Shown in pieces: positions 19,355-64,000 of a stretch of 64,000 bases of DNA. The notes below the pieces were generated by a model. The model saw nothing but the letters and a program-made list of their open reading frames with translations. It did no database searches and was not told where the DNA came from. A program made the translations under genes and the position numbers. Numbering within the stretch: position 1 is the first letter of the stretch; each line of letters starts with the position of its first letter. The DNA lies in NCBI GenBank assembly GCA_944324215.1, contig CALUVP010000054.1:1-64000 (forward strand). The letters run 5' to 3'. This stretch comes from Candidatus Gastranaerophilales bacterium (lineage in GTDB: Bacteria > Cyanobacteriota > Vampirovibrionia > Gastranaerophilales > Gastranaerophilaceae).

Positions 19355-19618
19355 ATGAAAATATTTGCTCTTAATAATTATAACTATAAATCATATATAA
19401 ATTTTAAAAGCTCTTTTGCCCAAGAAGAACGTGATATTGAAAACCAAAAAAGAGAACTTGATAATGAAACAAATAAAATAAAAGACGAAAAACGAGAACT
19501 CAACAATGAACTAGCGCAAATAAAAAATCAAGTTCGTGAACTGGATATGGATCTGCAAGATATTAAAAACCAAAAAAAAGAACTAGATAACGAATTGAGT
19601 AAGATTCGAAAATCTTAA
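19355..19618 (+). CDS. Coiled-coil protein of four 14-residue repeats
   Basis: Unknown 87-residue protein. Residues 30-85 are four tandem 14-residue repeats (30-43, 44-57, 58-71, 72-85). Each is two heptads, with a core like KRELDNELxxIK, and together they predict a continuous coiled coil. The N-terminus (about 1-22) is uncharged and contains INFKSS, the Phe-Lys-Ser motif also seen near the start of other proteins here. I start at ATG 19355, which has a strong GGAGG 6 nt upstream. The upstream in-frame TTG start would add a hydrophobic stretch without a ribosome site. Confidence 0.65.
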   Translation: MKIFALNNYNYKSYINFKSSFAQEERDIENQKRELDNETNKIKDEKRELNNELAQIKNQVRELDMDLQDIKNQKKELDNELSKIRKS

Positions 19619-24083: not shown

Positions 24084-25472
24084 TTAATTAAATATTTTTC
24101 CGGGATTCAATATATTGTTTGGATCGAAAATACTTTTTATTCTTCTCATATATTCTAGTGTTGAATTATTTACGATATTGCCTACATATGATAATTTCTC
24201 TACACCTACCCCATGCTCTCCTGAAATAGTACCCTGTAGAGATATTGCTAAATCATAGATTTCTGCTTTTGCCATGTAATAGCGCTTAAATTCTTCCTCA
24301 TTGTCTAAATTTAATGCTATTTGAGGATGAATATTTCCATCTCCTAAATGTCCTACCAAACATACCTTTAGATTGTATTTCTTACAAATCTCTTTGCAAC
24401 CGCATACCATTTTTGCTATGTTTGAACGTGGTACTATCAAATCATCAGACAACACATCTGGCGCAAGTTTTGCGGTTGCTGCAAAACTCGAACGTCTTGC
24501 TGTCCAAACTTTTTCTATTTCTTCAGCAGATTTTGCAGCTTGAATATTTGAAGCATTGGCCTTTTTTAAAGACTCTATGACCAAGCTCTGTTGTTGTTCC
24601 ATAGATGACTCAAAACCATCAATATCAATAAGTAACATAGCTTCTTTTTCATAACAAATTCCGCAAGGATAATACTGTTCTACAGTCAACATAGAGTTTT
24701 TATCCATAAAATCTATTGTTGAAGGACATATTCTATTTCTTATAATATTATTCACTCCTGAAACTGCATTTTCTATAGAATCAAAATAACCGATTATTGT
24801 TCGTCTTGACTCAGGTTTTGGTATCAATTTTAATTCAGCCTCCACTACTATCGCCAGCGTCCCTTCACTGCCTACTATTAACTGATTCAAATGATAACCT
24901 ACAGCATCTTTTATTGTATTAGCACCTAGCTTCATTATAGTTCCATCAGCTAAAACAACTGTTAAATTTAAGATGTAATCTTTTGTTGTTCCATATTTGA
25001 AAGCTGAAGCACCACCGGATGACTGTGCTATACTTCCACCAATCGTTGATACTTTATAATTTGATGGATCAGGAGGATAATATAAACCTTGAGATTCTGC
25101 AATTTTCTTGATTTCTCCAACTACCACACCAGGCTCCACAGCCATTGTCATGTTTATTGGATTGAAATCTAAAATTCTATTCATCTTTGAAAAATTCAAA
25201 ACTATCCCACCTCGAGGGCAAGTACACGCTCCTACCATATTGGTACCTGCACCTCTCGATATTACAGGCACTCTATGTTCATTGGCGTACTTTATAACTC
25301 GTCGAACATCTTCTATTGTTTTTACAAAAACAACTGCATCAGGGATTTTTGTACAACCTCTGCTGTTCGATGAATCTTCTGAATAACAATACAATTCTGA
25401 CTTATCAAACAATAAATTTTCACGACTTATTATATTTTTTAAATCTTTTTCTATTCTATTTTTCAACAACAT
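24084..25472 (-). CDS. FAD-linked oxidase, GlcD / D-lactate dehydrogenase type
   Basis: A PCMH/VAO-type flavoprotein that oxidises a 2-hydroxy acid such as glycolate or D-lactate. The FAD-binding domain shows VPVISRGAGTNMVGACT, PPDPSNYKVSTIGGSIAQSSGGAS and GSEGTLAIVVEAEL. The C-terminal domain has VCLVGHLGDGNIHPQIALNL and GTISGEHGVGVEKL, ending FDPNNILNPGKIF. The 462-residue length fits. No glcE or glcF subunit is adjacent, so the electron acceptor is unclear. Its start overlaps the end of the giant coiled-coil gene by 17 nt. Confidence 0.9.
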   Translation of the reverse strand: MLLKNRIEKDLKNIISRENLLFDKSELYCYSEDSSNSRGCTKIPDAVVFVKTIEDVRRVIKYANEHRVPVISRGAGTNMVGACTCPRGGIVLNFSKMNRILDFNPINMTMAVEPGVVVGEIKKIAESQGLYYPPDPSNYKVSTIGGSIAQSSGGASAFKYGTTKDYILNLTVVLADGTIMKLGANTIKDAVGYHLNQLIVGSEGTLAIVVEAELKLIPKPESRRTIIGYFDSIENAVSGVNNIIRNRICPSTIDFMDKNSMLTVEQYYPCGICYEKEAMLLIDIDGFESSMEQQQSLVIESLKKANASNIQAAKSAEEIEKVWTARRSSFAATAKLAPDVLSDDLIVPRSNIAKMVCGCKEICKKYNLKVCLVGHLGDGNIHPQIALNLDNEEEFKRYYMAKAEIYDLAISLQGTISGEHGVGVEKLSYVGNIVNNSTLEYMRRIKSIFDPNNILNPGKIFN

Positions 25473-31400: not shown

Positions 31401-32154
31401 GCTCTTGAGTTACTAAATCACTTATCCATTTTTTTGTACTTACCAAATCATCATGGGTTGCCATTCCTCGGAGCAAATCTTCTATTTGTAGATTTTTTTT
31501 GTCTAGCATTTGTATCGCTGATAGTATAGTAGAAGATGAGTTTGCTATATCTGTTAATTCTTTACCAAAATTTTTTACAGAATCTGAAGGATCAATATTT
31601 GATATAGATTTTATAACTGTTTTAAAGTTTTCATTCAAACTTAACACAATCGAATCAAACCCATTTGTTAAGCGTTCTAAATCATTTTTTAAAAATGTTA
31701 TATTTTTTATAATATCTTTCTTTTGTGAATCATCAGAACGTATTGCATCCAATCTAAGAGTTATATCTGACAATGTTTCTTTTTGTGAAACCACCTCTCG
31801 AGAAAATACAGATAAATTAGTCGCAACTATATCAAAAAGTTCCTTCACTTCACTTGATTTCAACGCCTCAGAACTATTTTTCAACAGATTTGAGAATAAA
31901 GACTCTATAGCACCAAATTTTGACAACAATACACTATGTCTTTCATCAAGATTTTGTTTCAAATCTGATAGAAATATTTTTATTAAATCAATATCTTCAT
32001 CTGTATTAATTTTTTCTAATTTTGAATTAATGCCAGCTAAAAGCTTATCGACATCAGATGTATTAAGTATACCCTGTGCTCTTATAGAATTTAATAAGGT
32101 TTTGATTGTATTAAAGTTCTCTGAAATCTCTGTATAATTGTTAATATCTGCCAT
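25456..32154 (-). CDS. Giant 2232-residue coiled-coil protein
   Basis: A single uninterrupted reading frame with no family I recognise. The composition is rich in Leu, Ile, Ser, Asn, Asp, Glu and Lys and nearly free of Pro, Trp and Cys. It is made of helical segments with heptad hydrophobic spacing, such as LDDVKTNIEDNIDELTKRID-like and LKDILNSSLEVLNTKSQEQL-like stretches. There is no signal peptide, membrane helix or enzymatic motif, so it is probably a cytoplasmic filament or scaffold, roughly 300 nm if fully extended (inference). The C-terminal 100 residues (LEETMNRFLVSIDDKMVLQQ, IAKLNKSIERIASHVVEK) are more basic. It precedes the GlcD gene with a 17 nt overlap. Resemblance to the helical bundles of chemoreceptors is probably generic. 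Confidence 0.85.
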   Translation of the reverse strand: MADINNYTEISENFNTIKTLLNSIRAQGILNTSDVDKLLAGINSKLEKINTDEDIDLIKIFLSDLKQNLDERHSVLLSKFGAIESLFSNLLKNSSEALKSSEVKELFDIVATNLSVFSREVVSQKETLSDITLRLDAIRSDDSQKKDIIKNITFLKNDLERLTNGFDSIVLSLNENFKTVIKSISNIDPSDSVKNFGKELTDIANSSSTILSAIQMLDKKNLQIEDLLRGMATHDDLVSTKKWISDLVTQEQQIVQSVDNLADKYYKIDNLAEKIDASVEIIVALKALITDKDDCLTAAIIERLNQLEDFVRGINSNNEFDEFKSNLEKTLYDIQKESSNLKAGLNLSSEELQKINESIKSLDINANFKTLSAEINKSEQNVSESLNRESDKIIQFVDINTTRALNEITNSADNLSAKLIESHAKISNICEKSFSDIESDISSLKDVVSQIDENNVSANNAIFSNITDRLALFENNLKNSLSKQEESVANSSTNLLKQISGLKELSGILDYKMDSSVIEINNAKSEFADLKESVDKILALDFAQKVSEFKVDLYSTKQDLISGIEASTTDLSEKLTNDLFSKYELLISKLDAVEEEIKGTQSEALTTVKNLLANISSSILDILSYVSADKKTETGDLELKLEDIDKSIKDISLGYIENIRDIVELARLQIDERIKKIQESSSAEIQRVNGSIVASTKSIRDDIENSYNKLVEVEKCFDDIKNVINANNETISTSIEGVISTTSLLKNDFEKKLASMHAAVLDKVSEFQKEFTCENADKISEIKFISENLHTKQLQNEQILNDELKGEIAQITGVLKLNIEALAEQVSSSSIKLDSLGHVLTNSLKNGIEEHIKDNKIELSANIENVSRDLSNKLETTTQRVNNICQNINENIQSIKSDIDEAHSNNVLRFEDLKQSMASDIQAKTSEIEEKLDNTNSKLYDIQNLIETKKSDLTQDINEHYNKTSAYLEEISENVNSNIKNVSDLICEKVSGSVLKLDDVKTNIEDNIDELTKRIDEKLFVTNSKIDNIDLSVNNLSQTTTNSMASTLAKILDNFVSLKALLANLNEKTIDDIKITIYEIKEDYQKLKNNIEAFDTTIDDDLTKQLSIIENNFISLNNLIERLFTQSEQSIQNTINTGLENITEELNNSISSSLAGYKTQIDLIFHNIENENSEYMGLLDTKILELKDILNSSLEVLNTKSQEQLKEISGNLNNILRENIDVTEKDYNNLKISLSNFVTEMEAQNTSNSESIKNSINAISEILRMGLQTQNDKFNEDFEKLKIKIEEITSSTSNFQENIEDKFANISANIDGAKSDIIYKNDNLEKNMNIKICSILDNIKTLSESLNVESQEIKKYINDGFSETLNNLYEKICSLIEQNSFDSSLKYNESISKLLDDIDTRSIEIKEYFETLNERLDKDEISRMNVFQAQLSELGNSFNCLIEDVKKGTKEEIDLISSSIVKNSKESLSELEQSLEQKVNLLLATSADISAGELKSMEVFADKILEQVKISQNNITTCKTLIIDFIKNELKVISDAIENEADSVGNKLLEQMSIMRDFQRDELIRITEQIQEKIEDSIYNNLNDLKSYIDLKSDKSVINSKLDVINSSLNKTAEDMLSVSNKLLSTSVFENSMLDMKTTNEILISTMADNLNSQIQNFLKLNIEKDIIESFNLFDKKFIDTVVEKYEEIKVINLQYKASLEEMHSSIGGIISNFVRVRDEIYDVISTITEGVNTKIDSLSLGFADLKAQILSKSFDEAFQSSITDKISGIENLVKEQFGFIEDISDLCCNNLPELTEMNALVKYNIINSLGDLNKKLDEQSLSIEEDIASLKTEVITQFLNIFNQISFVTEQEEILDFIQEKHSELITILSHIVTKSVEVVDIKSNVTEIDSKVDTIKEDINSINEKITSIMTSDGNVDYVYSLQDLESDIANLRLTLNDLKENNNNSKELENILKSTNTMYTLLESLKNEFPKFDSEEFKKDFEALSEDIVSISTRTNKLILASDESYKTLQDNLQDFKLVINDLDERTRNFARESGIDKIDSKLGIINSMIQNGAKTNQVFNQVFEYLAEWVDNAGTQISAISDKVETLDDIGQIKVMLEDLKAEAEDNTESAELVEALGNVFDKQAKKISSLEAKLDKVIVETKINTKSNKVDLSPLEETMNRFLVSIDDKMVLQQQKIDLLESKLENLASLINPKDAAQLTKKVGGMDRQIAKLNKSIERIASHVVEK

Positions 32155-34164: not shown

Positions 34165-35925
34165 CTAATTATTAACCTTTTGTTTAAAAACGTGCCCCTT
34201 TCTAGCTTGTTCGATATTTGGTGTATCAATTTCAAAAACATAAGCATCTGCGGGAGCAAGATTTACACGTAGTTCATTTTCGCTAACCTGAAATTCACTT
34301 TTCTCACCGTATTCTGGAATCATATTCTTTAACTTCTGCTCTTGTTTCAAACCTGGAATTTGAATTTTACAGGTTACGTTTCTATTAGGATTCTTATTTG
34401 CTACAACTAAAAGAGTTCTATCATTATTATGTCTTGCAAAAGTAATAATTTGATCATTCTTATCATCTATCTTGTCTAATTCTATAAAACTACTGTTTCT
34501 ATCAGCCAATACATCCAAATTTTCACTTCGCATCTTTAATACACCTTGCATTACACGTTCAATATCCGGATAATCTCCACCAGGTTTTCTAGATAAATTA
34601 AATAAAGCCAAACGATAACGGTGTTCATTCATCAAAGTCTTTTCTGTATAAGTTTCTATATTTTCTGTATTTCTATATTTATAATCATAATAATCACCTG
34701 TTTGGAAACCGTCTATAAAATAAGGATTACACATTGGAATTGTTGCTTGAAGTACAGTAGTTAACTTACAGAAATTCTCGCCACCGTGTATCATAGAAGA
34801 ACTATCGTCATGAGTTAAGAATGATCCTATTACACTTTTTCCAGCTGGCAAACGATGAGACAGATCTAAATTAAACTTTACATAATCATTAAACTCTGTT
34901 GCATTCTTCCAGTCATGAAAAATATGATACTGACCGTAATATTCATCAAAACCAGCTCTCAACAAATCTTCTGGCCTGTCATAAGGCATATTTACCATTG
35001 GAGAAGCACACTCATATGTATAGCTTTCTGCAAGCCAAGCAAACTCAGGGTCCCTTTTATGAGAATGATTTATTAACACATCCCAAAATTCAGGGGGCTT
35101 AGCTCTTGCTACATCAGCTCGTATACCGTCAATACCTAAATCTATACAAGCATCAACATATTGTTTATGCATTTCTAATAACTTCGGATTAAGAGTCCTC
35201 TCCGCTTCATCAGCCCAAGGCTCAAACATTCTTATATCAGCCCAACCTTGAGGAGTTTTATCTTCACCGTTTCTTCCATAAGCCATTAACTCTGGTTCTG
35301 CCTCAAACATATCTACAGAAGCACAGCTTGGCAAATCTAACATCACACTTATACCACGTTTATGACACTCATCGATTAGAGCTTTAAATTGTTCATCAGG
35401 TGAACGAGGATCATTCTTATCTATAATCATTGGATCTATTGCCAAATGACCATCCTCTGTTACATATTTAGCTGGTGAATATATTGAACCTGCGGTACCC
35501 ATTGCATTCTTCTTTCCGGTTGGATGAATAGGGAGTATATGGATTGTATTTATTCCTGTAGATTTTAATTCATCAAGTCTTGAAATAGCACTTAACAATG
35601 TTCCATTCTTCTCACCAGTAGACAAAGTGACTTTATCATCGCCATTTAAATCTTGCGCTGTAAAAGTTCGTGGTACAATTGCCATCATGACACTTTGATT
35701 ATTCTGAACTTTTGTACGTAAATTATTTTTATATGGTTTAACTTCCTTTATGGATAAATCGACCTTCTTAACGGTAGGAGCATTTATTCTTGCCAAATTG
35801 TCCAAATAACTATTTGTTACCTCACCGCTTAATGCAACATTTTTTTCTTCAGTCGCTTTATTTAAAGGTGGATTTATACTTGAAGACCTAAAACTAATAG
35901 GAATTACTTTACTTATTTGCATCAT
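34165..35925 (-). CDS. GH13 alpha-amylase-family protein without signal peptide
   Basis: A 586-residue (beta/alpha)8-barrel glycoside hydrolase or transglycosidase acting on alpha-glucans. Region II is GIDGIRADVAR with nucleophile Asp271; region III is WLAESY with acid/base Glu300; region IV is FLTHDD (372-373). Region I reads MLDLPSCAS, lacking the usual His of DxxxNH, as in some transferase-like subfamilies. A DxNxDD calcium-loop-like insert lies near 92-98. The C-terminal beta domain (about 490-575) is normal. No Sec signal exists; the N-terminus has ISFRSS instead. It is the last gene of a three-gene operon, overlapping the membrane-protein gene by 17 nt. Confidence 0.85.
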   Translation of the reverse strand: MMQISKVIPISFRSSSINPPLNKATEEKNVALSGEVTNSYLDNLARINAPTVKKVDLSIKEVKPYKNNLRTKVQNNQSVMMAIVPRTFTAQDLNGDDKVTLSTGEKNGTLLSAISRLDELKSTGINTIHILPIHPTGKKNAMGTAGSIYSPAKYVTEDGHLAIDPMIIDKNDPRSPDEQFKALIDECHKRGISVMLDLPSCASVDMFEAEPELMAYGRNGEDKTPQGWADIRMFEPWADEAERTLNPKLLEMHKQYVDACIDLGIDGIRADVARAKPPEFWDVLINHSHKRDPEFAWLAESYTYECASPMVNMPYDRPEDLLRAGFDEYYGQYHIFHDWKNATEFNDYVKFNLDLSHRLPAGKSVIGSFLTHDDSSSMIHGGENFCKLTTVLQATIPMCNPYFIDGFQTGDYYDYKYRNTENIETYTEKTLMNEHRYRLALFNLSRKPGGDYPDIERVMQGVLKMRSENLDVLADRNSSFIELDKIDDKNDQIITFARHNNDRTLLVVANKNPNRNVTCKIQIPGLKQEQKLKNMIPEYGEKSEFQVSENELRVNLAPADAYVFEIDTPNIEQARKGHVFKQKVNN

Positions 35926-38467
35926 CGCTCACCTTCCTAAATATATTTTGTGGATTTCTTATTTTTCCAAAACCAAATTGAGATATTATTGTTGCTCCAA
36001 TAACGCTTCCACCAATTGCCGAAGCTATTTTAAGCCATTTTTGATTTCCATATTTACGTTCTGCAGCATTCTTTATCATTTCTACAGAATTTTGTGCTAC
36101 CAAATTGAACTTTGACATTCTCGTTTGCTCTGATTTTGTATATTTTTTCAAAACACTTGAATCAAAATTATGATTTGGTTTTGTAAAATCGATATTATTA
36201 TTTCCCATTATATCTTTAAATCTCGTAATATATCTTTTGAATCGTCCAAGTACATCTCCTGAAGCTATGTCTTTTGATATACTCAAACCTTTTTCTGTGG
36301 ATGTTGTAAGGTTAGAATTCCAAGTTCTATTCATAACATCCTTATAAAATTCAGAATTATTTATCGTATTCAATTTCATTGTATGATCAGAAGATGTTGC
36401 TGTTAAAAGGGCGTTACGACCGAAGTTTGCAACTTCTTTATTGTAATCTCCTTCCGGTAACGGGCGCTTATACTCTTCTAATAAATGTAAAATTCTGTTA
36501 AAAGAATTTTTAGCCCCCTGATAACGCTCTATAATTCTTGAAATTTCCAGATTTTTTGAAGAACCAACACCTCTTGAATTATATTTTGCATATTCTAATT
36601 TATCTGCTTTTGATAAACTCCAATAACTTTTATCTGCATACTTATCAACTTTTACACCATCTAAAAGGTCGAATAAATCTTGCCTTGAGTTTATTGTATT
36701 TGATAATGTAGAAACATCTTCTTTTACCAATTTATCAATTGTATTATTAAACTTACCTATTTTATTAAGTCTTTTTGCAGTATTATTATAGTTATTTTCT
36801 ATACCTGTTATTAAATCCTTTAAATGAGATTCTGTATTACTTTTTCCATTTAAGTTTACTTCCATCTCTGACATAACCTTCGCAAGCTTCGTAACAGCTT
36901 CTTGATATTTATTTTCATCTTTTGTCAAATCACTTAAATGTTTTTCTAATATTTCTTTTGTAAACGCCTCTGACTCCCTCATTTGTTTTAAATCTTTATA
37001 TTTTATACCTAAAACTTCTAACAAAGTTTTCTCAAATTTGTTATAAGAACGAGCTATAACAGTTTCTGGAGCATGCTCTACTTTAAAAGATTTACATTTA
37101 TCCAGTAATTCCTGATTTGCCTTAAAATCACCTAATACTTTGGCAAAATCTACAACATCTTTTATATTATTTTCATTTACATATCTGCCATGGTTAGACT
37201 TTATGTTTTTAGATAAATTCTCCAATACTTCATTACGATACGCACTTAAAGCCTCTTTTGGCATACCTGTCTCAGAATTTATTTTATTATCAAATAACTT
37301 TTTAAACTCTCCTTTAATTAAAGAAAGTTCTTCATCTGTTATTCCATTAAAATCATATTTTTTTACAATCTCCGAAACTTCTTCTTTAGATGGAATAAAT
37401 ACCTTTTCTAAAATAGTCCTATTAGAAGAAGGTATATTTGCTCTTATAGAGTTAACTAAATTGTCTGCAAAATTATCACTTAAAGAATAAGCTCCCTTAC
37501 TATCAGGTAAAAATATCTTTGATAAATCGGCTTTTATACCTTCTGCAGCATTTGTATCCAATCCTTTTGTAAGAATTTCAACTAAATTATCGTACTCTAC
37601 CTTTGGCAGTTGTTTTCCTTTATAATTTACCAATATTTTTTCAACTTCCTTACTTAGTTTATTAGATTTAATGCTGTCAATCTGATCACTCATTGCTTCA
37701 GTTTTATGTAAGACTTGCGTAATTTCTGAATTATAATGTTGATTTCTCACTTTTTCCATTGCCGGACCTACAAGCTTTTCAAGCCCACAACACATTAAAG
37801 CCGCTAGTACAGGAGTACCAAAACCTGCCATTAGCATCCACAATGTATTAGTTTGTATACCGACCTTTCTTGCTTGTTCTTTGATTAAATCATGACGATT
37901 TTTTATTCCTCTAGGAATTCCCATTCTATCCCCGATTACATCCAAATCTTCTCCTGGGTAATCACCTTTATACATATCAAATGGTATGTAATTTGGATCT
38001 TGGAACACTGATTTTTTTCGACCTTGATCATCTATATATTCTTTTCCTATATCAAAACCTTGAATAATTCTAGAAGGTGCTTTTATTGCAACTAATGGAA
38101 ATAGTGACATTGAAGCTAGAAAAGAGCCTAATCCTGCAAATTCCATAAATCTTACCATCGGATTCTTTGTTCTGGCTGCAAGCATTGTGGCAATACCTAG
38201 ACCTCCTATTACTAAACCGACATCATTCAATCTACCTTGCTGGTGATCATTTGCATTTCCTGCCAGCCCATCTTTTATAGCTTTTATATCATAAGCTCTG
38301 TCTTTTATAAAATATTTGGGTACAGTTACTACTGAATCATGAACTAAATGACCTTCTGGAGGCAAAGGTTTTACATTATTATTAGTTTTTATTGTACCTT
38401 TTGCTTCCCTATAAGGTTTATGAGACTTAGTATTTTCTATATTTGTTTGTATAGGAATTATTGCCAT
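35909..38467 (-). CDS. Large membrane protein of unknown function (852 residues)
   Basis: Not recognised. Hydrophobic helices are seen at about 82-98, 108-128 and 206-230, with a last one near 826-845. Between 240 and 820 lies a long soluble, helical, Lys/Asn/Asp-rich region, for example ETGMPKEALSAYRNEVLENL, that may form coiled coil. The arrangement suggests a long helical domain held between N- and C-terminal membrane anchors. It starts 2 nt after the preceding membrane-protein gene and overlaps the GH13 gene by 17 nt. The three therefore make one operon and may work together at the cell envelope. Confidence 0.7.
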   Translation of the reverse strand: MAIIPIQTNIENTKSHKPYREAKGTIKTNNNVKPLPPEGHLVHDSVVTVPKYFIKDRAYDIKAIKDGLAGNANDHQQGRLNDVGLVIGGLGIATMLAARTKNPMVRFMEFAGLGSFLASMSLFPLVAIKAPSRIIQGFDIGKEYIDDQGRKKSVFQDPNYIPFDMYKGDYPGEDLDVIGDRMGIPRGIKNRHDLIKEQARKVGIQTNTLWMLMAGFGTPVLAALMCCGLEKLVGPAMEKVRNQHYNSEITQVLHKTEAMSDQIDSIKSNKLSKEVEKILVNYKGKQLPKVEYDNLVEILTKGLDTNAAEGIKADLSKIFLPDSKGAYSLSDNFADNLVNSIRANIPSSNRTILEKVFIPSKEEVSEIVKKYDFNGITDEELSLIKGEFKKLFDNKINSETGMPKEALSAYRNEVLENLSKNIKSNHGRYVNENNIKDVVDFAKVLGDFKANQELLDKCKSFKVEHAPETVIARSYNKFEKTLLEVLGIKYKDLKQMRESEAFTKEILEKHLSDLTKDENKYQEAVTKLAKVMSEMEVNLNGKSNTESHLKDLITGIENNYNNTAKRLNKIGKFNNTIDKLVKEDVSTLSNTINSRQDLFDLLDGVKVDKYADKSYWSLSKADKLEYAKYNSRGVGSSKNLEISRIIERYQGAKNSFNRILHLLEEYKRPLPEGDYNKEVANFGRNALLTATSSDHTMKLNTINNSEFYKDVMNRTWNSNLTTSTEKGLSISKDIASGDVLGRFKRYITRFKDIMGNNNIDFTKPNHNFDSSVLKKYTKSEQTRMSKFNLVAQNSVEMIKNAAERKYGNQKWLKIASAIGGSVIGATIISQFGFGKIRNPQNIFRKVSDDANK

Positions 38468-38468
38468 A

Positions 38469-39548
38469 CTAAATCACCGTACTTTCTTTGGACTTATCTA
38501 TAATATTTTTATTTGCCAATTTACCCATATGCTTTGCCTTATATATTGCATTAGCAGTTGTACCAACTGTCAATGCTGCCGTAAATAACATCCAAGCCTT
38601 ACCTGCATGCTTCATAAACCCTGATCTACCAGGATTTCCTGTCCATAATGTTTTAAATGATTTACCAAAGGACTTTATGAAAGTTTTTGATATCTCTGCA
38701 GTATTAGTACCAAAATTTTTCATTCTAGCAGCCATCTTTGTTCCAAATCCTTCACCAGGTTTTGCTATGTGACGTTTTCTATTTGAAATAGAGGTGAAGA
38801 AATCTTCCCAACAATCTTGGGTCGCTAATCCTACTCCTATACCTGCCCAAGCATATGATGATAAGCTCTTTGCAGTTTTGGTCGTTGAAATAATATTTTG
38901 TATTATCGGAGTAGTTTCTGTTACAGAATCATTTAAATCCTCTCCAAGTCCGAGTTTCTTTGCAATATTATCATAATAAGAAACGCCAATATCTTTTTGT
39001 ATTAAGTCTTTTCTAAAAAATTCTCTACTATCATAAACTTTTCTCTGCTGTACCTGAGGTATAATTCTTGCAGCCTCACCTGGTTCTTTCGGCAACGGAT
39101 AATAAACATGCTCTACAGGAAGCTCTATATCGACTCCAGTACCCCAATATACAGGACGAGTTACTAAATCTGGAGATAAGGTTTTGAACAATCCGTATAA
39201 AACAACTCCCAATCCCATTTTTTTACCATTTATACCTGCAGCAACACTTGAATTAGGCATTAAATGTTTGTTTACCAGATTAAATAACCCCATAAACATC
39301 CCACTACCAACCAAATAAGGTATAATACCCATTGACAAAAATTCGTAAAAATCAGAATTTACATCACCTTTCAATCCTTTTATAGGATATTGTAAAAATG
39401 CATTTGTAGTTTTTTGATATTTTTGCCGCATACGCGTCTTCAAGGTATTTGGCAAAATACGAGACTCCATTTCAACTTTATTTTTTTCAGTCTCCGGCTT
39501 AGCTCCAAACTTAACATTATTATCTGCTAGACTTAATGATTTAATCAT
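38469..39548 (-). CDS. Membrane protein with N-terminal VKFGA motif (unknown family)
   Basis: Not recognised. The N-terminus (MIKSLSLADNNVKFGAKPE) is polar and carries the Phe-Gly-Ala variant of a motif seen in other proteins of this window. Hydrophobic segments lie near 74-95 (FLSMGIIPYLVGSGMFMGLFNL), 110-125, 235-252 and 320-342 (WMLFTAALTVGTTANAIY). A proline/tyrosine-rich stretch (VEHVYYPLPKEPGEAARIIP) lies between. It is first in the operon, followed at 2 nt by the 852-residue membrane protein and then the GH13 gene. Function unknown; a glucan-related envelope complex is a guess from context. Confidence 0.7.
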   Translation of the reverse strand: MIKSLSLADNNVKFGAKPETEKNKVEMESRILPNTLKTRMRQKYQKTTNAFLQYPIKGLKGDVNSDFYEFLSMGIIPYLVGSGMFMGLFNLVNKHLMPNSSVAAGINGKKMGLGVVLYGLFKTLSPDLVTRPVYWGTGVDIELPVEHVYYPLPKEPGEAARIIPQVQQRKVYDSREFFRKDLIQKDIGVSYYDNIAKKLGLGEDLNDSVTETTPIIQNIISTTKTAKSLSSYAWAGIGVGLATQDCWEDFFTSISNRKRHIAKPGEGFGTKMAARMKNFGTNTAEISKTFIKSFGKSFKTLWTGNPGRSGFMKHAGKAWMLFTAALTVGTTANAIYKAKHMGKLANKNIIDKSKESTVI

Positions 39549-44913: not shown

Positions 44914-45276
44914 TTATGCATCAAAACAATATTTTGCAAATAAACCTGTCGCGAGTGACGTTAACAAAAATGCTGGAATCTGCCATTTAGTGCCTTTTAA
45001 TGTATTATAAGCAGATTTTTTTTGAGCCAAAGATAGCAAATCATTTTTTGTGCCAACTTTCTTTAATACAGATTTTCCAACTCCAAGATCTACAGCACGC
45101 ATTACTCCCACTCCTCCAGTTATGGCAGAAGCAACTCCACTGATTAGACCAATATCTTTGTTGGAAACTCCTGAAAAAATTGGTTCTTTGATTTTGTCTT
45201 TTTCAGCTTTTACATCTGTATTGCCATTTTTAGGGTTCAAAGTGATTGTCTCATGCCTTTCAATTCTAGTACTCAT
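44914..45276 (-). CDS. Small hydrophobic protein of unknown function (120 residues)
   Basis: Not recognised. A charged N-terminal 35 residues (RIERHETITLNPKNGN, DVKAEKDKIKEP) leads to IFSGVS, then two probable membrane helices (about 42-62, GLISGVASAITGGVGVMRAV, and 98-117, IPAFLLTSLATGLFAKYCF). PIFSGVS is a weak match to the Phe-x-Gly motif seen elsewhere here. GGAGA lies upstream of the ATG. It is monocistronic, convergent to dtd and divergent from rsmH. Confidence 0.6.
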   Translation of the reverse strand: MSTRIERHETITLNPKNGNTDVKAEKDKIKEPIFSGVSNKDIGLISGVASAITGGVGVMRAVDLGVGKSVLKKVGTKNDLLSLAQKKSAYNTLKGTKWQIPAFLLTSLATGLFAKYCFDA

Positions 45277-49074: not shown

Positions 49075-52000
49075 TTATCTTGCAATAATTGACAATCTTT
49101 GCCCTTCCTCTGCCTGTTCATTATGTTTATATGGATTTGATACAAAACTATATTGAGAATATTTGTTTTGATGACCTTTGAATATTATATTCTTAATCTT
49201 CTTTAAAATCATAACACCATTCTTTGCAGTCATACCGTCCATTATAATCTTACCGCCATCTTTTCTTACTATTGCTTTTTTATTACCAACTTGTTTTACT
49301 ACGTATTCAGTTTTATCCTTTGCATTAGCATTCATAAATACTGTACCTACAGGAAGTGCAACACCTGCTCCAAGCATTATCATATCCAAATCTGATTTTG
49401 GTAAAATCGGAACATATTTATTCTCCGGATTTATTGATTCTATATTGTTTTCTTCAAAGAACTTTTTACGTTTTTCTTCTGTATCAAGACCATATTTTTT
49501 GAAATAGTCAAATCTGTTTGAAAATTCTACATCACCAGCATTAAATACTGAAACTGTAATGTCTCCATTTGCATTCTGCATCATAAAAGCAAGTTTTGCT
49601 AAATCCTTTGTCAAAAGACGTCTTTCTACATTTAAGGCATCTTTTTGCTTTTTAGCCTCTGACTCATTAATTTTACCCTCTTTTTTTTGCTTGTCGATTT
49701 CTTTGAATTCTTTATTTATTTGATTAATTCTATACTTTATTTCACTTCTAGTTCTTGAATGAGTTGCAACTTCCAGTAAATATGGAGTACCATTATTTAA
49801 TGGTGCTAACTCTGAATTACTTCTATCTTTTACTGTTTCATTTATTGTATCTCTTATTGTTCTTCTATATTTGCCAATTGCAGATTCATCATCCAACTCT
49901 GTCCAAGGTAGAGCATTTCTATTTTGTAAATAGACGTTTTTAGCCTTTTCTTCATAACCTGTCATACCAAATTCATCACCTGAATACACCGTTGGAATTC
50001 CTGGAAGAGCTTTTAAAAATTCCATAATCATAGCTTCTTTAGCCACACCCGGCTCTGTTGCTGACTTATACAATCTTTCTACAATGTCTTTTTTATCAGA
50101 AATTTGTTTGCCAGATTTGTACTCTGCTTGATTTACAGCCATCTCTAATGCAACTTTTAAATCTCTTGCAGCATAACCATTTTTTCGCATTGCTGTTATA
50201 GGATCTTCTATTTTTTTGAAATCTTCTGTATGAGAAGATATAGTATCTTTATTATATTTTTCAGCAAAATCCTTGAAAGCTTTATCTAATTGACTTTTTG
50301 CATCAACATTTAAACCAGATTCTACGTAAGAGTCCTTTAAAAGTCTTGCAAGTTGAATTGTATACAAACTATACTTAGAATAATTTGGTTGATTACCAAC
50401 AATCTCTGCTGCATATTTCTCGTTTTCAGATCTTACATTTGCTGGTAAATCTTTCCAATCAAAATCACCATGAACTAAATAATTAGATAAATCTTTTTCA
50501 TTAGCCTTTTTTACTACAGCACTCTTTAACTGTATTCGTTCTGATGTTGAAAGTTTTAATCCGTTATTTTCTGCTAAAAAAAGTATTTCATCTAATGCAT
50601 TATTTAATGATGAAAGTTCTTTTATTCTTATTTTTTGAATATTCTCAGTAGCACCTTCTCCAAGATAATTGCCATAAGTTAAATCGACAATCGCATCCAT
50701 TAAACATTTCTTATCTTTATCTGAAATCGATTTATCTTCTTTTATTACTGATATCAATAACTTGCTGTTTGCAACCGCTCTTGGACTTACTGTTAAAAAA
50801 TAATCGTTATTATCAACATTCAATCTAAGCTCAATTGGAATCTCAGAATCTTTCTTTGCACCTGATAAAACTTTTATTGCTTCTTGTCTATACTTATGAT
50901 TTTGAGAAAAATTCTTATAATCATTTAATAGATTTGAATGAAACAATTCCATATCAACAGAAAGACCGTGAAGCATTCTTGGTTTATCATGGTTTCCCAT
51001 AAAAGTGTATAAATTTCTCAAATAATCTGCATTTCTCGTTTGTAATAATAGAGAAAGTCTACTCATAAAATTATCATGGGTATCACATCCACCTTTTCCA
51101 CTTTCGAAAGTATTTGCAAAATTTGTTAGAACTCCAGTAAAGAAATATGAATAAGCAGCCTCTGAAGTAATACCTGTTTCATTAAAAAACTTTGCCAAAG
51201 CATCAGGCTCACCATTAAATTTTTGATTTATATCTGTCAACCCATCATAAGGACAAGAATCTATTCCATAAGTATCACGCATAAGATCCGGAATATCAGT
51301 TATTTCTGCCACTATATAAGAATTTGGATTTTCTGATTTAACAGCCTGAACAAATTTCCCCCAGAATTTTATTGCATCATCCCAATTATCATCAAAAGCA
51401 TTATCTTCATTTCTAACAGCATCCATATCCATAACATCTTTTGCCGCATCAAGTCTCCAATCCAAACCTAACCCAGCTCTATCAACAACCGCTTCTGCGA
51501 TTCTAAAACTTGAAGTATCCGTTCCTGAAATTAGCTTAGAAATAGCATCCGCCACATAAGATATATCACCATCCGAAAGACTTCTTAATCCTTTATCAAT
51601 TTTCTTTTCAAGTTTAAGAGCCTCATCCTCAGGACTATTCCCGTTGACACCTAAAGCCTTAAGAGATGTACATTCTTGTAAAGTTTCATAATCATATGTA
51701 ATTTCTCCAGAAGGAAGAATTTTTGTCTTTAAGTTATCTCCTCCTAAAGATTTAAGAAATGCATACTTCGCGATATCTTTTCCAAGAAGTTCTAAAACAT
51801 ATTCTCCATACTCTGTATAATCACCACTACTATCCAATAGCTTTTCATTTGCAGACTCATTCACCTTGCGAATTACTGCATCTGCAAAATTTTTAAGCTC
51901 ATTATTATACAAACTATTTACTTTATTATAAATATTCGCGTATGGTTCTACTAAATGAGGATTATTCTGTTTCATTAAATCAAATCTTGAAACACCTATT

Positions 52001-53916
52001 GTATCATCGGTTGTAGCCCTGTTTGAAAAATAAGAAGTCGACAATACACCTACAGTATTTTCTCCTAATTCTAATGTATCAAGAGGCAAACTCATCAGTG
52101 CCTTTATTGTTACATCATCTTTAGATAAAATGCCTTTTGGGGAAAGTTTATAATGACCATTTATAATATTCGTTAGTACATTACTATCTAACTTAGCTTC
52201 CTCTGGAAGCTTTCCTTCTTTTATAAGTTTATCAATTTCTTCTGCTGATTTCACCTTACCTATAGTTCTTGCAGTATAAATAGTTTGAATATCTTTAACT
52301 TTTCCAGTCCAATATTTGCCTGCTTGAATAGCCATATCCTGAACTTCTTTGGTTCCTTTTTCAATTTGCTTTCTTTCATAATCACGTTCTGAACGGCTTA
52401 CTATTGATTGAATATTTTTCTCATCATAACCAGAAATTTTATAATTCATCTTTGCCATATCTGTATTGGCATCCCAAGCAACAAAACCACCTTCTGTTTT
52501 TTTATCAATCTTGAAATTAGAAAAATGCGCAGCCATGATTGTACCGTCAGCACTATCTAAATTTATATTTTTACCAAACTTATTATTCAATTCATTTATA
52601 ACTTTAATTCTATTATCATACTCTTCAGGCTTTATCTGGAACACGTAGTTTATTACAGTATCATCATGACTATTTATGTCAAGAGCTTTGCCCTCTGTCA
52701 GCTTTTCATAATTTATAATTGCTTTATCTAAATCCTTTATTTGACTATCACTTGCCTGTGAAGCATCATAAATTTGACATAAAGTCTCTTTATTCGGATT
52801 ATAATCAGGATTTGCAACTTTTTTATAAGTTCCATTTGATTGCAATTCATAATTGTAAGGCGAATTTACGATTCTATGGCGTAAGTTTTCTTTGTTTTTT
52901 GGAACAACTCCAAATCCTAAGTTAGAATTTTTTAAGCCTGACATTCTAAACCAATAATATGTTTGAGGATTTTTTTGTGCCCACCTAATAGCATATTGAA
53001 AATGTATTCCTTCTAATCCTTCAGAGGTGAATGTTCCATCATAAACATATTTCATTCCATTTTTATACAATTCACGGAAATAAGAGGCAAAATTTTCTGT
53101 ATTTCCCATATTAGGCGAAACCTGCATATTATTCTTATTCCAATAACCTAAAGACCATCCTTTTGAGCCATTAGCCATTGGAGTTGAAAATACATATCTA
53201 TATCCTGCATTCTTTAAATATGGAATTATCTTTTGTGCTCCAGCTATATTACCACCATATATATTGGAAAAGTTTTTTATTACACCTTCCATTTTCTTTT
53301 GGTAATCCTTGTCATATACTATCTCACCGGTATTAGAATCGCTAAACCCCGCAAACCTTGCTCCCGGCATCAAAGAATCCGGAGTAATAAGATAGCCCGC
53401 ACCTTGTACAATTGGAGTTGTTCCTTTTCTTGAAACCAATGTATGCGTATAATTAGATATTGGATCTTCTCCATAATCCTCTTCATAACTCAAAATACCA
53501 TCTGAGCCTTTAACTTCTTTAACCCACTGTTTATTATTAACTCTATAAACATATTCTCCATTTTGAGATTTTATTTTCACACCGGTGTCAGCGCCTTCCC
53601 AAATTACTTTTCCAGTAGATTTATCTTTTCTTACAACCTTGTATGCAAAAGGTGCATCTTTATCTAAATTCGTAATATCTTGTATATTAACGTCAACTCC
53701 GTCTTGATTCAAATTAACTACTGCTATAGGTTTTTCTGAGAGTTTGTAATTATATTTATCAGTTAGTGTTGCGCTGTATATATGAACTTCACAATTTTCT
53801 TTTTCACTATCATAAGGATAGTTAAACCTCATAACTGTTTCACCAACATTATTTTTAACATGTTGATAAGCTTTAAAACCGACATTACAAACACCATTAA
53901 TTCTATTTACAAACAC
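49075..53916 (-). CDS. 1613-residue GH13 alpha-amylase-family protein
   Basis: A very large alpha-glucan-active enzyme. The N-terminal 140 residues resemble a CBM48/Ig-like module. Catalytic motifs: region II LDWRLDAAKDV (nucleophile Asp823), region III YIVAEITD (Glu871) and region IV FMGNHDKPR (His976-Asp977). LPGIPTVYSGDEFGM lies well downstream. About 500 residues lie between the barrel start (near 230) and region II, and about 350 between region IV and the late barrel segment, so large helical inserts interrupt the barrel. No Sec signal is present; the start reads CNVGFKAYQH. The start is GTG 53916 with AAGGAG 9 nt upstream. A CTTTATATAT promoter-like motif lies upstream. Confidence 0.85.
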   Translation of the reverse strand: MFVNRINGVCNVGFKAYQHVKNNVGETVMRFNYPYDSEKENCEVHIYSATLTDKYNYKLSEKPIAVVNLNQDGVDVNIQDITNLDKDAPFAYKVVRKDKSTGKVIWEGADTGVKIKSQNGEYVYRVNNKQWVKEVKGSDGILSYEEDYGEDPISNYTHTLVSRKGTTPIVQGAGYLITPDSLMPGARFAGFSDSNTGEIVYDKDYQKKMEGVIKNFSNIYGGNIAGAQKIIPYLKNAGYRYVFSTPMANGSKGWSLGYWNKNNMQVSPNMGNTENFASYFRELYKNGMKYVYDGTFTSEGLEGIHFQYAIRWAQKNPQTYYWFRMSGLKNSNLGFGVVPKNKENLRHRIVNSPYNYELQSNGTYKKVANPDYNPNKETLCQIYDASQASDSQIKDLDKAIINYEKLTEGKALDINSHDDTVINYVFQIKPEEYDNRIKVINELNNKFGKNINLDSADGTIMAAHFSNFKIDKKTEGGFVAWDANTDMAKMNYKISGYDEKNIQSIVSRSERDYERKQIEKGTKEVQDMAIQAGKYWTGKVKDIQTIYTARTIGKVKSAEEIDKLIKEGKLPEEAKLDSNVLTNIINGHYKLSPKGILSKDDVTIKALMSLPLDTLELGENTVGVLSTSYFSNRATTDDTIGVSRFDLMKQNNPHLVEPYANIYNKVNSLYNNELKNFADAVIRKVNESANEKLLDSSGDYTEYGEYVLELLGKDIAKYAFLKSLGGDNLKTKILPSGEITYDYETLQECTSLKALGVNGNSPEDEALKLEKKIDKGLRSLSDGDISYVADAISKLISGTDTSSFRIAEAVVDRAGLGLDWRLDAAKDVMDMDAVRNEDNAFDDNWDDAIKFWGKFVQAVKSENPNSYIVAEITDIPDLMRDTYGIDSCPYDGLTDINQKFNGEPDALAKFFNETGITSEAAYSYFFTGVLTNFANTFESGKGGCDTHDNFMSRLSLLLQTRNADYLRNLYTFMGNHDKPRMLHGLSVDMELFHSNLLNDYKNFSQNHKYRQEAIKVLSGAKKDSEIPIELRLNVDNNDYFLTVSPRAVANSKLLISVIKEDKSISDKDKKCLMDAIVDLTYGNYLGEGATENIQKIRIKELSSLNNALDEILFLAENNGLKLSTSERIQLKSAVVKKANEKDLSNYLVHGDFDWKDLPANVRSENEKYAAEIVGNQPNYSKYSLYTIQLARLLKDSYVESGLNVDAKSQLDKAFKDFAEKYNKDTISSHTEDFKKIEDPITAMRKNGYAARDLKVALEMAVNQAEYKSGKQISDKKDIVERLYKSATEPGVAKEAMIMEFLKALPGIPTVYSGDEFGMTGYEEKAKNVYLQNRNALPWTELDDESAIGKYRRTIRDTINETVKDRSNSELAPLNNGTPYLLEVATHSRTRSEIKYRINQINKEFKEIDKQKKEGKINESEAKKQKDALNVERRLLTKDLAKLAFMMQNANGDITVSVFNAGDVEFSNRFDYFKKYGLDTEEKRKKFFEENNIESINPENKYVPILPKSDLDMIMLGAGVALPVGTVFMNANAKDKTEYVVKQVGNKKAIVRKDGGKIIMDGMTAKNGVMILKKIKNIIFKGHQNKYSQYSFVSNPYKHNEQAEEGQRLSIIAR

Positions 53917-54113: not shown

Positions 54114-55460
54114 TTACACATCTACACCTGACATCATATTAATTAAAGTATCAATAGTATTTTGCATACTTACTGAATCCGTGGTTCTTTGTTGTAAAAA
54201 AGCATTTATTTTTGGCATCATTTCTATTGCTATGTCGAGTTTAGGATTAGATCCCGGTTGATACATACCTACGTCTATCAAATCCTTATTTTCTCTATAC
54301 ATCGACATAATTTTTCTTAATTTTGAAGCAGCTTCCTTATGAGGCTGACTAGCTATAGCTGACATCAACCTTGAAATGCTTCCGAGAATATCAATAGCAG
54401 GATAGTGGTTGGCCTCCGCAACTTTTCTCGACAAGAAAATGTGCCCATCAGTAATACCTCTTACTGTATCTACAATAGGGTCATTTATATCGTCTCCCTC
54501 CATCAGAACTGTATAAAAAGCTGTAATAGATCCTTTAGGACTATTACCAGCCCTTTCAAGAACTTTTTGAAGCCAAGAAAATATTGAAGGCGGATAACCT
54601 TTCATTGTTGGAGGTTCTCCTATTGAAAGCCCTACCTCACGACCAGCCATCGCACAACGAGTAACAGTATCTGTCATCAAGAATACTTTTTTACCTTGAT
54701 CTCTGAAATATTCACACACAGCAGTTGCTGTTAAAAGGCATTTCTGTCTTATTAAAGGTGGTTGGTCTCCTGTTGAGCAAACCAATACAGATTTTTTCAT
54801 ACCTTCAGGACCTAAAGCATCTTCTACAAACTCTTTAACTTCTCTTCCACGTTCTCCGATTAGTGCAACTACGTTTACATCAGCATCAGAATTTCTGGCA
54901 ATCATACCTAAAAGGGTACTTTTACCAACCCCAGATCCTGCAAACAAACCCATACGCTGTCCGCAACCGAACGTCAAACAAGAATCTATTGCTCTAACTC
55001 CTGTAGAAAACATTTCTGTAATAATAGGTCTTTCAAAAGGTCCTGGAGGTGGCCCCTCTACAGGGCGCCAAAGAGCACCTTCTATATTCATGGGCTTTCC
55101 GTCAATAGGTTCCCCCATAGGACTTATAAGACGCCCCAAAAGAAAATCTCCTACAGGAATTATAATAGGTTTTCCAGTTGTTGTAACAAGACTTCCTTGC
55201 CCTATACCGGCTCCATCATATAAAAGAAGCAACTGTGCAGCATCACCCTTAAAAGCTACAACCTCTGCAGGCTTTTTCTCTCCGTTTGCCGCTTCTATAT
55301 AACACAAATCACCAATTTTAAGACCTGGTAACTTTACTTCTACTGTCAAACCCACAAGTTTTGATACACTTCCCTTAAACTGATACAGTTCTAGGTTCTC
55401 TATAGTATGACTAACTTTGGATTTCAGACTATCTATAAATTCCTGATTAACACCTTCCAT
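54114..55460 (-). CDS. FliI/SctN-type export ATPase (orphan)
   Basis: The ATPase of flagellar or non-flagellar type III secretion, which unfolds and loads substrates. It has the N-terminal barrel (VSKLVGLTVEVKLPGLKIGD), Walker A GSGVGKSTLLGM, IGERGREVKEFVED, the Walker B-like KVFLMTDTVTRCA and the C-terminal helical domain. PPSIFSWLQKVLERAGN and the absence of a DELSEED-like loop favour FliI/SctN over an F1 beta subunit. Length 448 residues is normal. No other flagellar or T3SS gene is near. Its start has no Shine-Dalgarno and a promoter abutting it, so it is separately transcribed. Confidence 0.92.
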   Translation of the reverse strand: MEGVNQEFIDSLKSKVSHTIENLELYQFKGSVSKLVGLTVEVKLPGLKIGDLCYIEAANGEKKPAEVVAFKGDAAQLLLLYDGAGIGQGSLVTTTGKPIIIPVGDFLLGRLISPMGEPIDGKPMNIEGALWRPVEGPPPGPFERPIITEMFSTGVRAIDSCLTFGCGQRMGLFAGSGVGKSTLLGMIARNSDADVNVVALIGERGREVKEFVEDALGPEGMKKSVLVCSTGDQPPLIRQKCLLTATAVCEYFRDQGKKVFLMTDTVTRCAMAGREVGLSIGEPPTMKGYPPSIFSWLQKVLERAGNSPKGSITAFYTVLMEGDDINDPIVDTVRGITDGHIFLSRKVAEANHYPAIDILGSISRLMSAIASQPHKEAASKLRKIMSMYRENKDLIDVGMYQPGSNPKLDIAIEMMPKINAFLQQRTTDSVSMQNTIDTLINMMSGVDV

Positions 55461-60256: not shown

Positions 60257-60946
60257 TTATTTTCTATTTTCAGCTTTTCTCGTGCCGACTTCCACCCCAG
60301 GCAAAACAAGAACTGCAGGAATAATCCTAGCTATATTATGAACCCATTTTGAAGTTGATATGTAAGAAGCTCCTGCAACCAGATCGTCTAAGTGTGCAGA
60401 GAAGTCAATCAGTTTAACTCCACGTTCATCCTTAGTTTTAAATAAAAAATTACCAAATTTATTCATTAAAAAATTTGCAAGGTAAACTCCTGTAAAAATT
60501 CCAGCCAAAGAGCCAACAGATTGTGCCAACTTTCCGTGTTTACAGCATATTTTATTAAATAAAGCGACAGTCAATATTGGAACTGAAATATTTCCCATTT
60601 GCATGATTGCTTCACGCATTTTTGCTTTTCTATCGTTTTTATCTTTATCTATAATAAAACCACCAGCAAGTCCGCCAAGACAAGTTCCAACACCCATAGA
60701 AATTATTTGTTTTGCAAAAAATGGAGTTGAGGCAACATATGATTTCTTAAAATTTTTAAACATCTTTGCTGGACTTAGAGAATATCCGGAGCCTTTTGCT
60801 AATACTGCTAAACTGGCTCCAATTCCTAATGCTGAAGTTGCTGCAACAACAGCTTTCTCTTTTAATGTACATTTATCCTTATCACCAGAAGAATGATGGG
60901 AAAAAGCTGTATTTGAAAAGTTACTCTTTATGGGACTTATATTCAT
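60257..60946 (-). CDS. Membrane protein of unknown function (229 residues)
   Basis: Not recognised. The polar N-terminus (MNISPIKSNFSNTAFSHH, with SNF and TAF) leads to probable helices at about 35-52 (VVAATSALGIGASLAVL), 79-100 (ISMGVGTCLGGLAGGFII), 117-135, 143-165 (VGSLAGIFTGVYLANFL) and 205-220. Small Gly/Ala residues are frequent. I start at ATG 60946 with GGAAGG 7 nt upstream; the longer frame has no ribosome site. The N-terminal organisation resembles the other motif-bearing proteins here. It lies near the unknown 158-residue gene. Confidence 0.65.
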   Translation of the reverse strand: MNISPIKSNFSNTAFSHHSSGDKDKCTLKEKAVVAATSALGIGASLAVLAKGSGYSLSPAKMFKNFKKSYVASTPFFAKQIISMGVGTCLGGLAGGFIIDKDKNDRKAKMREAIMQMGNISVPILTVALFNKICCKHGKLAQSVGSLAGIFTGVYLANFLMNKFGNFLFKTKDERGVKLIDFSAHLDDLVAGASYISTSKWVHNIARIIPAVLVLPGVEVGTRKAENRK

Positions 60947-63758: not shown

Positions 63759-64000
63759 CTATGGATTATTTTTTTTATTATCTTTATATTCACCTTCTTT
63801 ATTAATTGCATCCTCTGCAATATCACCACCAACTAGTCCAATTATCAAACCGGCACCCGCCAAGCAAGCTGCCGCCGGAGCTGCCACGAAAGATGCAACC
63901 AATACCGCCCCTGCACCTAGTGTTCCGCCTACAATACTACCAAATTTCCCTCTAAAATTTACATTTCTCTCAGGATTAGTGAATTGCTGTCTACCTTGAT
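63759..64000 (-). CDS. Gly/Ala-rich hydrophobic protein with NVNFRG motif (5' end beyond the window)
   Basis: On the minus strand an open frame runs from the window edge to TAG at 63759-63761. The visible part begins with polar residues (QGRQQFTNPERNVNFRGKFG), then a long Gly/Ala-rich hydrophobic region (GSIVGGTLGAGAVLVASF, AAACLAGAGLIIGLVGG) resembling glycine-zipper proteins. It ends in an acidic/lysine tail (EDAINKEGEYKDNKKNN). NVNFRG is close to the NVGFKA and NVKFGA motifs of other proteins in this window. The N-terminal end is not visible. Unknown family. Confidence 0.65.
   Translation of the reverse strand, partial: QGRQQFTNPERNVNFRGKFGSIVGGTLGAGAVLVASFVAAPAAACLAGAGLIIGLVGGDIAEDAINKEGEYKDNKKNNP

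What the first reader, a model, noticed from the sequence alone, without database searches (positions are those of the whole stretch)
35880..35925. Shared Phe-centred motif near the N-terminus of several unrelated proteins: a candidate sorting tag
Within about 10-20 residues of the start, several proteins carry a hydrophobic residue, any residue, Phe, then Lys/Arg/Gly, then Gly/Ala/Ser. Examples are the 586-residue GH13 protein (PISFRSS), the 359-residue membrane protein (NVKFGAK), the 1613-residue GH13 protein (NVGFKAY), the coiled-coil protein at 19.4 kb (INFKSS) and the right-edge protein (NVNFRGK). A weaker case is the protein at 44.9 kb (PIFSGVS). None of these has a Sec signal, and they share no other homology that I can see. 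Their functions differ (glycosidases, membrane proteins, coiled coil). A recurrent tag on unrelated proteins suggests sorting, export or anchoring. I know of no named family for it.
Basis: partly seen in the sequence, partly recalled or inferred. Interest (0 to 1): 0.75.

Follow-up and report, generated by a model that had tools for sequence, protein, structure and literature searches.

The report
Phe-centred N-terminal tag, gut cyanobacteria
Some 1-2% of proteins in a family of non-photosynthetic gut cyanobacteria begin with a floppy tail holding a conserved phenylalanine motif, probably an address label, and the family's near-universal filament-less flagellar exporter is the best candidate to read it, though that link is untested.

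Summary
The window is from a Candidatus Gastranaerophilales MAG. All six motifs cited are in the sequence. A sharper form, [I/V/L/T/P]-x-F-[K/R/G/S/T/Q]-[A/G/S] at residues about 8-35, is real. In the GH13 protein at the cited coordinates, F12 is the only nearly invariant residue among the first 39; F14 of the 359-residue membrane protein behaves alike. Both Phe codons are used. A profile trained on only these two families finds about twice the expected N-terminal hits among about 1,190 unrelated Gastranaerophilales protein families, peaking at residues 9-24, with no clear excess in outgroups. Tagged proteins include two GH13s, a GH77, AAA ATPases, a phospholipase D, an acyltransferase, a methyltransferase and small membrane proteins. 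AlphaFold gives the two modelled tails very low confidence; GH13 paralogues carry a Sec signal instead. So "sorting tag" is plausible. My best mechanism: an export signal for a flagellum-derived, secretin-less type III system found in 96 of 97 genomes (its ATPase is in the window). That link is inferred, not shown. Intracellular docking is the main rival.

The parts
35884..35898 (-). tag ISFRS (residues 10-14) of the 586-aa GH13 protein; F12 is the conserved Phe
   Evidence: F12 is the only nearly invariant column before residue 40 in 31 homologues; Phe kept in 45 of 49 orthologues with TTT 27 and TTC 18
34165..35925 (-). GH13 alpha-amylase-type enzyme with a tagged, disordered N-terminal tail of about 60 residues
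   Evidence: PF00128 and PF02806 over cut-off; pLDDT about 30 for residues 1-30 and mostly under 50 to 61; Sec-signal paralogues align from residue 61-67
35909..38467 (-). 852-aa membrane protein between the two tagged genes; N-terminus MAIxPIQxN...KPYREA, no Phe tag (possibly a Tyr variant)
39501..39515 (-). tag VKFGA (residues 12-16) of the 359-aa membrane protein
   Evidence: F14 nearly invariant in 34 homologues, the only such position between M1 and I31
38469..39548 (-). 359-aa multi-helix membrane protein, found in 89 of 97 family genomes, first gene of the three-gene operon
   Evidence: model helical with residues 1-25 at pLDDT below 50; no significant fold match
53869..53883 (-). tag VGFKA (residues 12-16) of the 1613-aa GH13 protein
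   Evidence: NVGFKGYQH in four close homologues, PTFKGY and LSFKGY in two distant ones
49075..53916 (-). 1613-aa GH13 protein; in relatives L059, L060, L061 and L066 its homologue lies directly upstream of the 359-852-586 operon
54114..55460 (-). ATPase (FliI/SctN type) of the near-universal flagellum-derived type III system, 197 bp upstream of the tagged 1613-aa gene
   Evidence: PF18269 hit G000:C54:54144-54350; FliI/YscN subfamily over cut-off, but below the FliI and SctN equivalog cut-offs
19397..19411 (+). tag INFKS of the 87-aa coiled-coil protein (start ATG 19355)
   Evidence: profile score 11.9
60911..60925 (-). tag-like SNFSN of the 229-aa membrane protein 60257-60946
   Evidence: profile score 6.7, below the strict threshold
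45169..45183 (-). weak case PIFSG (residues 32-36) of the 120-aa protein
   Evidence: no homologue in the loci held, so conservation untested
63948..63962 (-). tag VNFRG (residues 33-37) of the 99-aa right-edge membrane protein (63759-64058)
   Evidence: one of three tag-like genes between ClpP and the 98-aa gene next to FlhB/SctU (L003); absent there in G086

Best explanation
A subset of Gastranaerophilaceae proteins, about 1-2% of protein families, carries an N-terminal address tag: a short, mostly polar and unfolded tail, often starting M-x-[I/V], with [I/V/L/T/P]-x-F-[K/R/G/S/T/Q]-[A/G/S] at residues about 8-35, ahead of the folded domain. I propose that this tail is an export signal read by the near-universal flagellum-derived type III apparatus (FlhA, FlhB, FliP, FliH, FliI, FliE, FliF and rod proteins, no flagellin, no secretin of its own), which would send alpha-glucan enzymes, lipid enzymes, ATPases and membrane proteins out of the cell, possibly into neighbouring or host cells. 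Shown: the tag, its selection and its spread over unrelated families; predicted disorder; near-universality of the apparatus in the family. Inferred: that the tag is bound by a common receptor, that the effect is export, and that the receptor is the type III apparatus.
For: Phe is the most conserved residue of the N-terminal tail in two families of unrelated fold, with both codons used. A profile from these two predicts tags in unrelated families, peaking at residues 9-24. Tails are predicted unfolded. Five GH13 paralogues, one in the same genome, start with what reads as a Sec signal instead. FliP was found in 96 of 97 family genomes, FlhA in 96 of 97 and the FlhB orthologue in 92 of 97; nine genomes without flagellin still have one FliP and one ATPase, and the three with flagellin have two of each. 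Two families of the class with no FlhA show no significant tag excess. In this genome the ATPase neighbours the tagged 1613-aa gene, and three tag-like genes lie beside FlhB/SctU. Known parallels: chlamydial glycogen enzymes (GlgX, MalQ) bear N-terminal T3S signals (PMC4829429); flagellar rod and hook subunits use an N-terminal hydrophobic signal plus a docking motif in an often unstructured N-terminus (PMC8983047).
Against: No co-variation test inside the family was possible, because almost every genome has the apparatus. Other class families with FlhA (f6, f3) show no significant tag excess, so the tag does not follow the apparatus. Tag genes are not regularly next to type III genes in other genomes, and the three beside SctU are absent there in the sister species G086. 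Rod proteins of the system lack the tag. Some 359-aa orthologues have lost it. The excess over shuffled N-termini is modest (about 30 vs 19), so part of it is composition. Classical T3S signals have no fixed consensus (general knowledge), so this would be unusual.
Confidence: 0.37

Rival explanations
1. The tag is a docking peptide inside the cell: a common scaffold or membrane receptor binds Phi-x-F-x-A/S/G and gathers enzymes, ATPases and membrane proteins at one site (for example a glycogen body or a membrane domain). Nothing is exported.
For: Tagged AAA ATPases, acyltransferase, methyltransferase and alpha-glucan enzymes can all work in the cytosol; tagged multi-helix membrane proteins such as the 359-aa one are awkward export substrates; a short disordered tail with one conserved aromatic residue looks like a typical short linear motif.
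Against: GH13 paralogues with Sec-type signals suggest that this enzyme family can work outside. No scaffold candidate was identified.
Confidence: 0.3
2. The tag is an export or surface-anchoring signal for another machine (Omp85/BAM-like, type IV pilus secretin, or an unknown translocon).
For: Each of 12 genomes tested has exactly one secretin. An N-terminal Phe recognised by Omp85 is the import signal of glaucophyte plastids, which are of cyanobacterial origin (PMC2222254).
Against: The plastid signal works inwards; no gene link to Omp85 or pili was seen. Not tested directly.
Confidence: 0.15
3. The motif in the GH13 and 359-aa families is conserved for reasons of each protein or of their shared operon (self-inhibition, binding one another), and the proteome-wide excess is mostly base composition.
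For: The two best families are operon neighbours; regex-level enrichment is absent; shuffled N-termini explain part of the excess.
Against: The profile also finds clear tags on unlinked orphan families, with a peak at residues 9-24 and a Phe preference; the NVNFTG family (135 aa) keeps the motif in 4 of 5 members.
Confidence: 0.13
4. A nucleic-acid effect: the conserved bases matter for translation start rather than the peptide.
For: The motif lies near the start codon.
Against: Both Phe codons are used (27:18 and 35:14), Phe is sometimes replaced by Tyr, and its distance from the start varies from 7 to 21 residues.
Confidence: 0.03

Closest known systems
Type III secretion N-terminal signals (Chlamydia glycogen enzymes; flagellar rod/hook subunits)
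   Same: Short, unstructured N-terminus ahead of the folded domain, on unrelated proteins; alpha-glucan enzymes among the cargo in Chlamydia (PMC4829429); small hydrophobic residues near residues 3-7 and a second docking element further in for rod/hook subunits (PMC8983047)
   Different: Here there is a recognisable consensus centred on Phe; secretion untested; the Phe lies nearer the start than the 30 or more residues of the flagellar docking motif
Phe-dependent transit peptides of glaucophyte plastids (cyanelles)
   Same: A conserved Phe near the N-terminus of otherwise divergent presequences; cyanobacterial ancestry (PMC2222254)
   Different: Import into an organelle through Omp85; here the motif lies at residues 8-35 of bacterial proteins of unknown destination
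Secretin-less or filament-less flagellar T3SS relatives (PMC3459982; the needleless T3SS* of Myxococcus, PMC12075869)
   Same: Export gate, ATPase and MS-ring genes without flagellin
   Different: Here close to universal in a bacterial family, with FlgB/C/F/G-like rod genes, and coexisting with a true flagellar set in some genomes; no close comparison with these systems was made

Membership tests
Sec or lipoprotein signal peptide | Hydrophobic core of about 8-15 residues near the N-terminus | tested here: not met
   Tagged N-termini are polar (sequences); GH13 paralogues do show such a core
Type III secretion substrate | N-terminal unstructured segment outside the folded domain | tested here: met
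   pLDDT about 30-36 for residues 1-20 in both models
Type III secretion substrate | A type III export apparatus in the same genome | tested here: met
   FlhA, FlhB, FliP and ATPase homologues
Type III secretion substrate | Export that depends on the N-terminus and on the apparatus | not testable with these tools
   needs an experiment
Type III secretion substrate | Tag present in relatives with the apparatus, absent without it | tested here: inconclusive
   No significant excess in f2 and f7 (no FlhA), but none in f6 and f3 (FlhA present) either; samples are small
Injectisome (NF-T3SS) | Own secretin SctC | tested here: not met
   One secretin per genome in 12 genomes, presumed to be the pilus one
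Flagellum | Flagellin | tested here: not met
   No flagellin in nine of twelve genomes that have the export set
Flagellar gate recognition motif | Docking motif at residue 30 or later that binds the FlhB C-terminal domain | tested here: not met
   In the two aligned families the Phe lies at residues 7-21, too early; binding to FlhB not testable

The most novel reading that the evidence does not exclude
Gastranaerophilales use a Phe-consensus N-terminal secretion tag, read by a close-to-universal, filament-less flagellar export machine, to deliver alpha-glucan enzymes, lipid enzymes, ATPases and membrane proteins out of the cell, which would make the incomplete flagella reported for these gut cyanobacteria a working secretion system.
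Probability: 0.3. Interest if true: 0.88.

Novelty: new variant of a known kind. Interest (0 to 1): 0.6.

Why it matters
Gastranaerophilales are widespread animal-gut bacteria whose means of acting on their surroundings are largely unknown. A readable tag would give a genome-wide list of candidate exported or co-localised proteins. It would also give a role to the flagellar gene subset that earlier work read as too incomplete for a functional flagellum (PMC4040986). Short consensus signals are unusual among type III substrates, so a true one would help work out how such machines choose their cargo.

Tried and rejected
Unsupervised motif search on N-termini found only hydrophobic, membrane- or signal-like motifs; enumeration of gapped triples gave only N..F.A (reduced alphabet) as a hint. 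An M-x-[I/V]-x(1-3)-[I/V/L] start goes with the Phe motif only at the loosest threshold (odds ratio 2.6, p=3e-4), so a two-part signal is suggested, not established. Fold search with the 359-aa model: no match with E<=0.001. A secretin of the system: none found. No paper in the searches made reported this tag or a non-flagellar T3SS in this group. Considered and dropped: prepilin site, lipobox, nucleotide-level signal.

Full report
Source. The window is contig C54 of a 2.07-Mb, 31% GC assembly. Homologues of the GH13 protein come mainly from records titled Candidatus Gastranaerophilales, non-photosynthetic gut cyanobacteria.

Observation. The coordinates 35880-35925 are the first 15 codons of the 586-aa GH13 gene, which keeps the residues I take for the GH13 catalytic set (DGIRAD, AES, THDD; from the sequence and general knowledge, not tested). 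The gene is the third of an operon: 359-aa membrane protein, 852-aa membrane protein, GH13. In relatives L059, L060, L061 and L066 the 1613-aa GH13 homologue is a fourth, upstream gene.

Is it chance? Its own pattern fails: 13 hits against 9.5 expected in fresh sequence, 10 against 13.6 in another set. Conservation tells another story. Among 49 orthologues of the GH13 protein the tail is highly variable in sequence and length, yet of the 48 with a recognisable motif 45 have Phe and 3 Tyr; the residue two before it is I, V, T or L in 44 and the one two after is A or S in 42. In a separate alignment of 31 homologues, F12 is the only nearly invariant position before residue 40. In the 359-aa protein, F14 is the only nearly invariant position between M1 and I31. 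Codons TTT and TTC are both common (27:18; 35:14), so the peptide is what is selected.

Does it generalise? I built an eight-position profile from these two families only and scored all other protein families held; gene calls were my own simple ones. Scores of 8 or more occur in 27-31 of 1,192 families against 12.3-13.3 expected from internal segments of the same proteins and about 19 from shuffled N-termini; window families were left out. Hits peak at residues 9-24, at 3-4 times the background rate. The effect is strongest for Phe, marginal for Tyr, and absent for Leu, Ile, Trp and Met. Outgroup families of the same class show no clear excess: 6 vs 3.2 at a score of 8 or more. The excess of roughly 15 in 1,192 suggests tags on one to two per cent of families, a few tens per genome (my extrapolation). 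Some high scorers in the list are ordinary cytosolic proteins (for example TRFRA in a conserved enzyme), so single hits need conservation before belief.

Who carries it? Beyond the window: a GH77 4-alpha-glucanotransferase, a CheR-type methyltransferase, a PLD-family protein and an acyltransferase; a DUF2963 protein and AAA ATPases; and many orphans without a Pfam match. The 135-aa NVNFTG family keeps the motif in 4 of 5 members. Structures were predicted for the 586-aa enzyme and the 359-aa membrane protein: the enzyme tail (residues 1-61) and the membrane protein tail (1-25) are mostly below pLDDT 50; the rest of the 359-aa protein is mainly helical and matches nothing solved with confidence. 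Five GH13 paralogues, one of them in this genome (L002), start with what reads as a Sec signal where the tagged form has its tail; three others (L101, L103, L104) have neither. That swap is the best hint that the tag has to do with location.

A candidate machine. In the Gastranaerophilaceae sample FlhA is found in 96 of 97 genomes, FliP in 96 of 97 and the FlhB orthologue in 92 of 97. Nine of twelve genomes examined lack flagellin but keep one FliP and one ATPase; the three with flagellin have two of each. Held loci show the cluster FlgG/F-like, FlgB, FlgC, FliE, FliF, FliH, FlhA and FliI-type ATPase (FlgB, FlgC and FlgF/G; FliE, FliF, FliH and FlhA; order). There is one secretin per genome, presumably the pilus one. 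The ATPase and FlhB of this contig score below the curated equivalog cut-offs of both the flagellar and the injectisome models. Earlier work described incomplete flagellar gene sets in this order and inferred loss of function (PMC4040986). I read them as a kept, non-motility type III system. In this contig the ATPase gene is 197 bp upstream of the tagged 1613-aa gene, and three tag-like genes sit next to FlhB/SctU; but the same SctU locus in a sister species lacks them, and other type III loci show only one possible tag gene, so linkage is weak evidence.

Mechanism. I commit to export through this apparatus at 0.37. The parallels are chlamydial glycogen enzymes, whose first 20 residues drive type III secretion, and flagellar rod/hook subunits, with a hydrophobic N-terminal element and a second docking element. 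Intracellular docking at a scaffold (0.3) fits nearly as well, since many tagged enzymes could work inside. Other outlets, such as Omp85, are possible; a Phe near the N-terminus is what Omp85 recognises in glaucophyte plastid precursors, which is only an analogy.

Limits. The two training families are operon neighbours. The stretches come from MAGs. No experiment bears on the claim.

Noticed in passing
window 54114-55460; L003:1964-3031; L169, L176, L178, L179, L180: A second, non-motility flagellum-derived type III system (FlhA, FlhB, FliP, ATPase, FliE, FliF, FliH, rod proteins) is close to universal in Gastranaerophilaceae, also in genomes without flagellin.
   Followed up: partly
G000:C162:18523-19587 and one such match in most family genomes: A shorter FlhA relative (about 490-505 aa open frame) matching only roughly positions 310-655 of the FHIPEP model is widespread in the family; function unclear.
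   Followed up: no
L003:72-1507 and window 63759-64058: Three consecutive tag-like genes, one an AAA ATPase, lie between ClpP and the 98-aa gene beside FlhB/SctU; the sister species G086 lacks them there.
   Followed up: partly
window 34165-39548: Operon of a 359-aa membrane protein, an 852-aa protein with membrane segments and a GH13 enzyme, conserved across relatives; in four loci a GH13 protein of about 1,550 aa is added upstream.
   Followed up: partly
L169:4569-5819, L135:16614-17675: Conserved protein starting MGMAASQAR...YEGQQINQARTAL lies near FlhA loci and has no Pfam match; possible type III component.
   Followed up: no
L101:11968-16135: A hook-gene cluster (FlgE-like, FlgD-like and others, by eye) directly follows an untagged version of the GH13 operon.
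   Followed up: no
window 25456-32154 and L166:864-9287: Very long proteins of 2232 and 2807 aa, not examined further; the second lies close to FlhA.
   Followed up: no
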